Below, piece after piece: positions 37,822-40,199 of a DNA stretch of 64,000 nt; positions within the stretch are counted from its first letter, which is position 1; every line of letters starts with the position of its first letter. Where the stretch lies: assembly GCF_009730335.1 (NCBI RefSeq), contig NZ_CP046315.1, positions 1,116,001 through 1,180,000 of the forward strand. The letters run 5' to 3'. The notes under the pieces were generated by a model that had not been told where the DNA came from, made no database searches, and saw only the letters and a program-made list of their open reading frames with translations. A program made the translations under genes and the position numbers. Origin of the DNA: Schaalia odontolytica. GTDB taxonomy: Bacteria; Actinomycetota; Actinomycetes; Actinomycetales; Actinomycetaceae.

Positions 37822-37850
37822 TGGCGACCTCTCCTCATTTCTGGTACAGT
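37822..37850 (+). promoter_or_regulatory. Candidate promoter of the infC operon
   Basis: TGGCGA (37822-37827) and TACAGT (37845-37850) are separated by 17 bases. The start would fall near 37857, exactly where the structured leader begins. Confidence 0.5.
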
Positions 37851-37856
37851 TGATAC

Positions 37857-38030
37857 GACCGTCTGGGCGAAAGCCCGGAACGCAAGCGGAGAAATCCCAC
37901 CTGGATACCCGCCTCTCGACAGAGAGGATGCCGCCCATCAGGGGCGCCGCGCAGGGGATCGGGTACGACGGTCAACACCCGTGTGTGTTGACCTATGGAA
38001 GCCTCCGTGCGCGTCGCGTAACGGAGGCTT
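37857..38030 (+). ncRNA. Structured infC leader RNA with transcription attenuator
   Basis: The ~174-base leader contains a GNRA hairpin (37862-37868 with 37873-37879, loop GAAA) and a 6-bp hairpin (37912-37917 with 37922-37927). It also has a 9-bp hairpin (37970-37978 with 37985-37993) and a terminator at its end. A 7-bp helix (37857-37863 with 37967-37973) could close the whole domain. Because some helices share bases, two alternative folds are possible. Leaders of infC-rpmI-rplT operons in other phyla mediate feedback by L20 or IF3. I cannot match this one to a named family. Confidence 0.65.
37999..38030 (+). terminator. Intrinsic terminator (attenuator) ahead of infC
   Basis: A perfect 10-bp stem (37999-38008 with 38021-38030) runs into TTTTCGTTT. 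It lies 39 bases before the infC start and after the promoter, so it should stop transcription within the leader unless relieved. Confidence 0.85.
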
Positions 38031-38069
38031 TTCGTTTCGCGCATAAGGATTCTGTGGAAGGAGCCGCTC

Positions 38070-38708
38070 ATCAGCGAGACTCGCATCAATGAGCGTATTC
38101 GAGTCTCCGAGGTTCGCCTCGTGGGACCCGGAGGTGAACAGGTCGGCGTCGTCCGAGTTGAGGACGCGCTGCGTCTGGCCGAAGAGGCCGGGCTCGACCT
38201 GGTTGAGGTTGCGCCGAACGCCAAGCCGCCCGTCGCAAAGCTCATGGATTACGGCAAGTACAAGTACGAAGCCGCCCAGAAGGCCCGCGATGCTCGCCGC
38301 AACCAGGCGAACACGCAGCTGAAGGAAATCCGCTTCCGACTGAAGATCGACGATCACGACTTCGGCGTCAAGAAGGGCCACGTTGAGCGCTTCCTGTCCG
38401 CCGGCGACAAGGTCAAGGTCATGATCATGTTCCGCGGTCGAGAGCAGTCTCGCCCCGAGGCTGGCGTTCGCCTCCTGCAGCGCCTCGCCGAGGAGATTGG
38501 TGACCTTGCCACCGTCGAGTCGATGCCCCGTCAGGACGGGCGCAACATGACGATGGTGCTGGCCCCCACCAAGCGCAAGGCTGACGCCCTGACTGAGCAG
38601 CGCAAGCGCCGCGAGGCCGAGCGCGCTGAGCGCCGGGGCAAGCGCGCGGAGCGCGCCAGCAAGGACCAGGCCCGAGTGGCAGCCGACAAGGCTGACGAAC
38701 AGGACTGA
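38070..38708 (+). CDS. infC: Translation initiation factor IF-3 (AUC start)
   Basis: IF-3 binds the 30S subunit and checks start codons. No ATG, GTG or TTG in this frame covers the conserved N-terminus; the first such codon (GTG 38121) would remove it. Reading from ATC 38070 gives [19 protein letters not shown], the family start, and AAGGAG (38058-38063) sits six bases before it. A rare AUU or AUC start is the known basis of IF-3 self-control. The 212-residue product has both domains (linker near [12 protein letters not shown]) and a charged C-terminal tail of ~35 residues beyond MVLAPTKRK. Confidence 0.92.
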
Positions 38709-38744: not shown

Positions 38745-38939
38745 ATGCCGAAGAACAAGACTCATTCCGGTGCTAAGAAGCGCTTCCGCACGACCGGCTC
38801 GGGCAAGATCATGCGCGAGCAGGCCGGCGCCCGCCACCTGCTGGAGCACAAGTCCAGCCGTAAGACCCGCCGTCTGGCGACCGACCAGGTCCTGGAGACC
38901 GCTGACGTCAAGCGCGTCAAGCGCATGCTGGGCATCTGA
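38745..38939 (+). CDS. rpmI: Ribosomal protein bL35
   Basis: The 64-residue basic protein reads [20 protein letters not shown] at its start, with the [14 protein letters not shown] core of L35, part of the 50S subunit. ATG 38745 follows GAAGGAAT. It lies between infC and rplT, the universal order, and shares the infC leader control. Confidence 0.97.
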
Positions 38940-39350: not shown

Positions 39351-40199
39351 GTGAGCTTTTCCGCCGAGCGCCTGACGGTCCTCGATAATCCCCGCGCCGA
39401 TCGCGTGCGCAGGGTGTCGGGTCTGGTCGGGCGCTCGGCGCGTTCGCGTTCGGGCCTCATGCTCGTTGAGGGGCCTCAGGCCGTGCGTGAACTTGCCGCG
39501 CACCGACCGGATGCGGTGCGCGACGTGTACGTGAGGGAGGACGCGTGGGAGACGCACGCGGACGTCGTGGACGTGGCCCGGCGCGCGACGCGCTGGGTGC
39601 ACCCGGTGACCGCCGAGGTGTCTGCGGCCCTGTCGGGGGACTCACAGGGCATCTGCGCAGTCGCCTCCCTGGATGCGCTGTCGCGTGAACTACCGGAGCC
39701 GAGTGTTGGCGAAACGATCGTCGTGCTCGCTCAGGGGCGCGACCCCGGCAACGTTGGCACGATCATTCGCACGGCCGACGCATTCGGTGCGGTCGGTGTC
39801 GTGGCCGTCGCGGGCACGGTAGATGCCGCGAGCCCGAAGGTTGTGCGCTCGAGCGCTGGCTCCGTCTTCCACATTCCCGTGTGCGTGGTCCCTTCCTTTG
39901 CTGACGCCCGCGCACTGATTCACGGCCGCAGTGCGGCCCTGCTGGGTACCAGCGGCGGCGCCGCTTCGATCAGCCTCTCCGATCTCCTCGTGCAGGGAGT
40001 GTCGGCCCGCTCGCGCCTGTCCCAGTCGCACGCGTGGGTGTTCGGCAACGAGGCACGCGGCCTGTCGGGCGACGAGATGCGCCTGTGCGATGGGCTCGTG
40101 TCTATCCCGATGACGGGTGATGCTGAATCTCTGAACGTGGCCAGCGCGGCCGCGACCTGCCTCTTTGCCTCCCAGACCGTGCGAGGCGTCGAAAACTGA
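39351..40199 (+). CDS. TrmH-family (SPOUT) RNA 2'-O-methyltransferase
   Basis: The 282-residue product has an N-terminal substrate-binding domain (to about 100) and a SPOUT knot with motif 1 LAQGRDPGNVGTIIRTADA, motif 2 FGNEARGLSGDEM and motif 3 IPMTGDAESLNVASAAA. It is expected to methylate a ribose in 23S rRNA or tRNA; the target cannot be read. GTG 39351 starts three bases after rplT, so it is transcribed with the ribosomal genes. Confidence 0.88.
   Translation: MSFSAERLTVLDNPRADRVRRVSGLVGRSARSRSGLMLVEGPQAVRELAAHRPDAVRDVYVREDAWETHADVVDVARRATRWVHPVTAEVSAALSGDSQGICAVASLDALSRELPEPSVGETIVVLAQGRDPGNVGTIIRTADAFGAVGVVAVAGTVDAASPKVVRSSAGSVFHIPVCVVPSFADARALIHGRSAALLGTSGGAASISLSDLLVQGVSARSRLSQSHAWVFGNEARGLSGDEMRLCDGLVSIPMTGDAESLNVASAAATCLFASQTVRGVEN

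What the first reader, a model, noticed from the sequence alone, without database searches (positions are those of the whole stretch)
37857..38072. Structured infC leader with attenuator, followed by an AUC start
Seen: two clear hairpins, a 9-bp hairpin, a 7-bp closing helix, two mutually exclusive 5-bp helices (37894-37898 with 37955-37959, and 37906-37910 with 37961-37965) and an intrinsic terminator 39 bases before the start codon. infC then starts at ATC. Leader attenuation and IF-3 start-codon feedback are known separately in other phyla; here they appear stacked. I cannot assign the leader to a known RNA class.
Basis: partly seen in the sequence, partly recalled or inferred. Interest (0 to 1): 0.75.

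Follow-up and report, generated by a model that had tools for sequence, protein, structure and literature searches.

The report
Class-wide RNA switch before infC
The RNA just ahead of the gene for translation initiation factor IF3 carries a conserved structure, shared by many actinobacteria and apparently undescribed, that looks like an on/off switch which either ends transcription early or hides the ribosome-binding site.

Summary
A covariance model of its core (R1) has one match in the host genome at E<=1 and matches just upstream of infC in 72 of 80 named actinobacterial loci. Another alternative pairing does: ACGCAAGCGGAG (37880-37891) with CUCCGUGCGCGU (38003-38014) in the terminator's 5' arm. 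A leader's own strand pairs better downstream than strands swapped in from other taxa in 43 of 53, 20 of 31 and 41 of 50 loci; control segments show nothing. Some same-family genera show no terminator, and the strand faces the Shine-Dalgarno sequence instead. Rfam has no match. Best reading: a new autoregulatory leader of infC-rpmI-rplT, working like the Bacillus L20 attenuator with another structure; L20 as ligand is inferred. Five mycobacteria-like leaders lack the antiterminator signal. The AUC start is real but ordinary; B. subtilis also combines an attenuator with an ATT start.

The parts
37845..37850 (+). -10 element TACAGT (TANNNT); places the transcript start next to P1
   Evidence: TANNNT lies 6-7 nt before a P1-like RAYY in 34 of 35 genus leaders and 10 nt before it in the other; shuffled regions give a gap of 4-12 nt in 7%. 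The sigma-70 consensus scan found no promoter here
37857..37861 (+). P1 5' strand GACCG, pairs with 37969-37973 (weak support)
   Evidence: 75.6% of cells paired in the genus, 2 of 5 pairs with double changes
37862..37879 (+). P2 hairpin with GAAA loop
   Evidence: 5 of 6 model pairs with double changes in A2; 6 of 6 in A3
37880..37891 (+). ACGCAAGCGGAG: 5' strand of the antiterminator / anti-sequestor; its GGA also forms P3
   Evidence: own-versus-swapped duplex tests, control segments
37888..37897 (+). P3 GGA-loop-UCC
   Evidence: paired in all 26 rows and in all usable cells of the 99 rows but almost invariant, so no covariation evidence
37899..37964 (+). P4: ACCUG / CGGGU plus a bulged G and a covarying inner stem, with a variable inner region
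   Evidence: 4 of 10 pairs with double changes in A2, 7 of 10 in A3
37969..37973 (+). P1 3' strand CGGUC; overlaps the next hairpin
37970..37993 (+). P5 hairpin GGUCAACAC/GUGUUGACC
   Evidence: an overlapping hairpin of 6 bp or more was found in 9 of 35 genus leaders
37999..38032 (+). intrinsic-terminator-like hairpin AAGCCUCCGU...ACGGAGGCUU then UUUU
   Evidence: local fold -24.0 kcal/mol; the same type of hairpin in other family members
38003..38014 (+). CUCCGUGCGCGU: 3' strand of the antiterminator, in the 5' arm and loop of the terminator
   Evidence: best downstream partner of 37880-37891 (row L001)
38056..38063 (+). Shine-Dalgarno GGAAGGAG
38070..38708 (+). infC (IF3), ATC start
   Evidence: Pfam IF3_N and IF3_C; start-codon tally
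38745..38939 (+). rpmI (L35)
   Evidence: Pfam PF01632
38967..39347 (+). rplT (L20)
   Evidence: Pfam PF00453

Best explanation
[quoted passage not shown] Shown by comparison: a conserved core (P2, P3 and P4 around GCAAGYGGAG...UCCCACCYGG...CGGGU) lies right upstream of infC in many families of class Actinomycetes, and the same GCAAGYGGAG strand has a covarying alternative partner in the 5' arm of the downstream terminator. Inferred mechanism: without ligand, the strand pairs with CUCCGYGCGC as soon as that is transcribed, forming an antiterminator, and RNA polymerase reads on. When a product of the operon, most likely free L20, binds the core, the strand is held in P3 and the terminator forms. 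In genera without a terminator, the released CUCC strand covers the Shine-Dalgarno sequence instead, so the same core and strand appear to control translation. The ATC start adds the usual IF3-sensitive start and is not special to this locus.
For: Core: 96.6% of cells paired and covariation score 0.394 against 0.142 shuffled (0 of 500 shuffles) on 26 leaders; 0.409 against 0.132 on 99 CM-aligned rows. R1 hits the window at 63.7 bits and, at E<=0.1, 72 of 80 named loci just upstream of infC. Of 80 hits at E<=1e-3 in 197 class genomes, 62 are next to infC, 1 is elsewhere, and 17 could not be judged because their infC place was not listed. Antiterminator: own strand better than the swapped mean in 43 of 53 (p 6e-7) and 20 of 31 (p 0.04), and in 41 of 50 named loci (p 1e-6); 18 control segments give p 0.07 to 0.98, the lowest in the opposite direction. 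Examples of both-side change: GCACA.GUGGAG/CUCCAC.UGUGC (L200, L221) and ACGA.AGAGGAG/CUCCUCU.UCGU (L231). Two platforms. Folding: just before the terminator is complete the antiterminator form is 5 kcal/mol better than the P2-P5 form; afterwards the terminator form is 10 better. infC-rpmI-rplT order kept within 1 kb in 168 of 170 loci.
Against: No ligand evidence: the operon order is nearly constant, so it cannot separate L20, L35 and IF3, and no sequence likeness to the host 23S rRNA locus was found. Five tested leaders that look mycobacterial (family f8) keep the core but show no such antiterminator (z -1.1 to 0.6), and the class-wide test is weaker than the family one: only 10 of 31 (class), 30 of 53 (family) and 20 of 50 (named) have z below -2 against shuffled downstream regions. 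14 in-class loci without the anchor motif could not be tested. P3 is nearly invariant, so its pairing is not proved. P1 is weak. The terminator U-tract is short and interrupted and the simple scan did not list the hairpin. Sequences are related, so p values overstate independence.
Confidence: 0.66

Rival explanations
1. The same switch, but its ligand is IF3, the first gene's product, so IF3 would control both early termination and initiation at its own AUC codon.
For: 62 of 63 assessable strong hits in the class lie next to infC, and an ATC/ATT start is usual (163 of 177 loci).
Against: Known regulators of this gene cluster answer to L20 (B. subtilis, and E. coli for rpmI-rplT: passages); in E. 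coli infC itself is regulated by IF3. No IF3-bound leader attenuator came up in the papers searched.
Confidence: 0.17
2. The same switch, driven by a small molecule, ion, temperature or the speed of transcription rather than a protein of the operon.
For: A very conserved stretch (GCAAGYGGAG) and two expression platforms, as in riboswitches.
Against: One match in the host genome at E<=1, and 62 of 63 assessable strong hits in the class lie next to infC. The conserved stretch is largely explained by its double pairing role.
Confidence: 0.1
3. A constitutive structured leader that sets mRNA stability or processing, with no regulated switching.
For: Structure alone could protect an mRNA 5' end; no expression data were examined for this genus.
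Against: A second, mutually exclusive helix covaries with the terminator arm or the anti-Shine-Dalgarno strand.
Confidence: 0.07
4. One reading: 37894-37898/37955-37959 against 37906-37910/37961-37965.
For: Both helices can be drawn in the window.
Against: No double changes and no more pairing than shuffles in 32 genus leaders; the outermost pair of each is missing in 21 of 32 and 29 of 31.
Confidence: 0.02

Closest known systems
L20 leader of Bacillus (Rfam RF00558; Choonee 2007, recalled and as cited in others; Babina 2018, passages seen)
   Same: Same operon infC-rpmI-rplT, leader upstream of infC, transcription attenuation by an intrinsic terminator, non-AUG infC start.
   Different: RF00558 finds nothing in the host genome at E<=10. 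The Bacillus RNA is described as limited to Firmicutes. Here some same-family members carry what looks like a translational platform.
L20 translational operator of E. coli (pseudoknot near the rpmI start)
   Same: Regulates genes of the same cluster.
   Different: That one acts on rpmI and rplT and leaves infC out (passages); this one lies before infC.
Long infC 5' UTR of M. tuberculosis (Arnvig 2011, PMC3207917, passages seen)
   Same: A 326-nt leader of the same gene with more reads than the coding region (ratio 2.6 exponential, 4.9 stationary), likened by its authors to L20 control.
   Different: No structure class or covariation in the passages seen; the authors point to homology with the infA 5' UTR. 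The five mycobacteria-like leaders tested here keep the core but lack the antiterminator signal.

Membership tests
Rfam RF00558 L20_leader | match to the family covariance model | tested here: not met
   0 matches in the host genome at E<=10; the control run was over the cut-off in 2 of 14 control genomes
Rfam RF00558 L20_leader | leader upstream of infC-rpmI-rplT | tested here: met
   order infC-L35-L20 within 1 kb in 168 of 170 loci
Rfam RF00558 L20_leader | intrinsic terminator that competes with an alternative fold | tested here: met
   by comparison and folding only; the consensus terminator scan was negative
Rfam RF00558 L20_leader | binds ribosomal protein L20 | not testable with these tools
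   needs binding assays
E. coli L20 operator | pseudoknot at the rpmI start | not tested
   the conserved element found here lies before infC; the infC-rpmI gap was not studied
Any described RNA family (Rfam 15) | match at the gathering score | tested here: not met
   0 in the window, 0 in 20 related loci; the 4 permissive matches are far below their cut-offs
Autogenous r-protein leader (general kind) | conserved structured leader limited to its own operon | tested here: met
Autogenous r-protein leader (general kind) | repression by a protein of the operon | not testable with these tools
   inferred from the operon content

The most novel reading that the evidence does not exclude
An undescribed RNA family, present across much of class Actinomycetes, in which one sensor core and one switch strand work with two exchangeable platforms (terminator or Shine-Dalgarno cover), and which answers to IF3 itself, so that IF3 would tune both transcription and start-codon choice of its own operon.
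Probability: 0.15. Interest if true: 0.85.

Novelty: new variant of a known kind. Interest (0 to 1): 0.68.

Why it matters
It would give the actinobacteria, including Cellulomonas, Brevibacterium, Curtobacterium and Saccharomonospora (names, hits), a regulator for the operon of IF3, L35 and L20. Bacillus and E. coli have different solutions for the same gene cluster. It would add a case of convergent ribosomal-protein control, and a natural series in which the same switch strand serves a transcriptional or a translational platform in genera of one family. The covarying pairs make it directly testable by mutation and compensation.

Tried and rejected
My own early idea that the two helices form an H-type pseudoknot (note) was dropped once P4 was seen to be nested and covarying. 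Known Rfam classes and RF00558 do not match. Primary-sequence mimicry of the host 23S rRNA: the best local score of the core against the rRNA locus (L180, flanks included) is no better than shuffles (85 of 100 at least as high). P1/P5 exclusivity as the main switch: an overlapping hairpin was found in only 9 of 35 genus leaders. Presence outside the class: R1 found nothing next to infC in the 73 other-class genomes among 80 phylum genomes. A shorter look-alike in L143 and L147 was left undecided. No plasmid match. A first B:G permutation test with a crude site rule gave a weaker signal (outer pairs 186 of 312 against a mean of 164.9; 31 of 5000 shuffles as high); 30 loci had no site by its rule and some of its sites were clearly misassigned. 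In one search my explicit terminator pair list was off by a few bases, so the two 'T' energies there are not used. In one search the P2 constraint was wrong, so its constrained energies are not used. The automatic platform typing is rough: family 22 terminator, 10 other hairpin, 21 SD of 53; class 5, 13, 10 and 3 none of 31; named 15, 24, 10 and 1 none of 50. Whole-segment folds call some obvious terminators 'SD' (for example L104, L118).

Full report
What is there. infC (38070-38708, ATC start), rpmI and rplT follow the leader, then a SpoU-family rRNA methylase gene. The leader folds better than all 200 shuffles (z -3.2). A -10-like TANNNT sits 6-7 nt before a P1-like RAYY in 34 of 35 genus members (10 nt in the other), against 7% of shuffled regions with a gap of 4-12 nt, so transcription probably starts at the edge of the structure. 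The sigma-70 consensus scan found no promoter.

Conservation. A DNA search with the leader plus the start of infC matched 35 of 35 genus genomes, some only in the coding part; the leader anchor AAGYGGAG followed by CCCACC was then found in all 35. Across all loci fetched by then it was found upstream of infC in 141 of 178. Of the 37 misses, 23 are among the 26 other-class loci and 14 are in the class, one of them cut short upstream. An alignment of 26 compact leaders gives three helices. P2 covaries. P3 (GGA with UCC) never varies. P4 has an invariant outer part (ACC with GGU) and a covarying inner part behind a bulged base. 96.6% of cells pair, with 61 double-change cells against 17.1 shuffled; covariation score 0.394 against 0.142, and no sliding control comes near. 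On 99 rows aligned to the model the values are 93.8%, 282 against 81.4, and 0.409 against 0.132. That alignment is fitted to the model and holds one off-target row (L059 875-950).

Reach. Model R1 hits the window at 37848-37976 with 63.7 bits and has no other match in the host genome at E<=1. In 197 class genomes 141 have a match at E<=1, many of them weak. Of the 80 matches at E<=1e-3, 62 are within 700 nt of infC, one is elsewhere, and 17 could not be judged. In 100 hand-picked loci 98 match at E<=0.05, among them those the model was built from. In 80 named loci chosen by infC similarity 72 match at E<=0.1, all on the infC strand just upstream; L232 has one extra match on the other strand; L228, L234, L238, L240, L243, L244, L252 and L254 have none, and L254 holds only 25 nt upstream. 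Some of these loci overlap the species used to build the model. Among 80 phylum genomes the matches in other classes are weak and not at infC.

The switch. They compete with P3 and P4. A different alternative helix stands out: 37880-37891 with 38003-38014, ten pairs around a two-by-two mismatch, in the 5' arm and loop of the terminator. For each leader I computed the best duplex of its own 12-nt strand with its own downstream region, and the mean for the same region with strands from other taxa. Own is better in 43 of 53 family-level loci (-13.98 against -11.94 kcal/mol) and in 20 of 31 class-level loci (-13.19 against -11.99). In 50 named loci it is better in 41 (-13.60 against -11.17, Wilcoxon p 1e-6). 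Nine other 12-nt segments of the same leaders, in each of the first two groups, show nothing (p 0.07 to 0.98; the 0.07 case runs the other way). Against shuffled downstream regions single loci are less striking: z below -2 in 30 of 53, 10 of 31 and 20 of 50. Single cases show change on both sides: CAGC with GCUG (L052, L113), GUGC with GCAC (L020, L097, L101), GUGGAG with CUCCAC (L200, L221), AGAGGAG with CUCCUCU (L231), CAAGAGG with CCUCUUG (L227). Related sequences inflate all these p values; the control segments share that relatedness and stay flat.

Two platforms. In many leaders the partner strand is the 5' arm of a hairpin followed by a T-run. In several genera of the same family (for example L055, L111, L115, L126) I see no such hairpin; the partner lies about 40 nt before the start and pairs with the GGAG of the Shine-Dalgarno sequence. 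The automatic tally is rough (see Tried and rejected). CUCCGYGCGC or a close form of it is kept in both settings although its downstream partner differs, which is expected if its other partner is the upstream strand.

Order of folding. With the transcript ending at 38014 the antiterminator form (-73.6) beats the P2-P5 form (-68.4); with the terminator complete (38034) the terminator form wins (-85.8 against -75.4). Forcing P1 costs stability at both points (-60.0 and -80.2). These are equilibrium estimates without ligand or pseudoknots.

Ligand. Not shown. L35 and L20 follow infC on the same strand within 1 kb in 168 of 170 loci; L241 has a wider gap and L074 no L35 match, so gene order cannot tell L20 from L35 or IF3. 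L20 is favoured because it controls this cluster in B. subtilis and E. coli (passages). The host 23S rRNA locus gives no sequence likeness.

Against. The five tested leaders that look mycobacterial (L061, L083, L086, L148, L152, family f8; the name is my inference) keep the core but have no such antiterminator. P1 is weak. M. tuberculosis data in print show a 326-nt infC leader with more reads than the gene (Arnvig 2011, PMC3207917, passages), which fits attenuation but says nothing on this structure.

Start codon. By a mechanical rule 143 of 177 loci start infC at ATC, 20 at ATT, 8 at ATA, 6 undecided. This is ordinary, and B. subtilis has the same pairing of attenuator and ATT start (Babina 2018, PMC6097659, passages). 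The stacking is therefore not new.

Print. I found no description of this RNA class in the listings of ten paper searches (one search was rejected), nor in passages of PMC2965389, PMC6429828 and PMC2864571. Only openly licensed papers are held.

Noticed in passing
   Followed up: no
L143 and L147, upstream of infC: A shorter look-alike (AAGUGGGG...CCCACCCGG...CCGGGU) before infC in a family of another class of the phylum; R1 does not find it at infC.
   Followed up: partly
L123, P3 loop: A 31-nt stretch that looks self-complementary replaces the short P3 loop.
   Followed up: no
L061, L083, L086, L148, L152: Mycobacteria-like leaders keep the core but show no match to the switch strand; several have a GGGCCCUGC-type terminator instead. 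They may switch differently.
   Followed up: partly
window 39351-40199: A SpoU-family rRNA methylase gene follows rplT almost without a gap and may belong to the operon.
   Followed up: no
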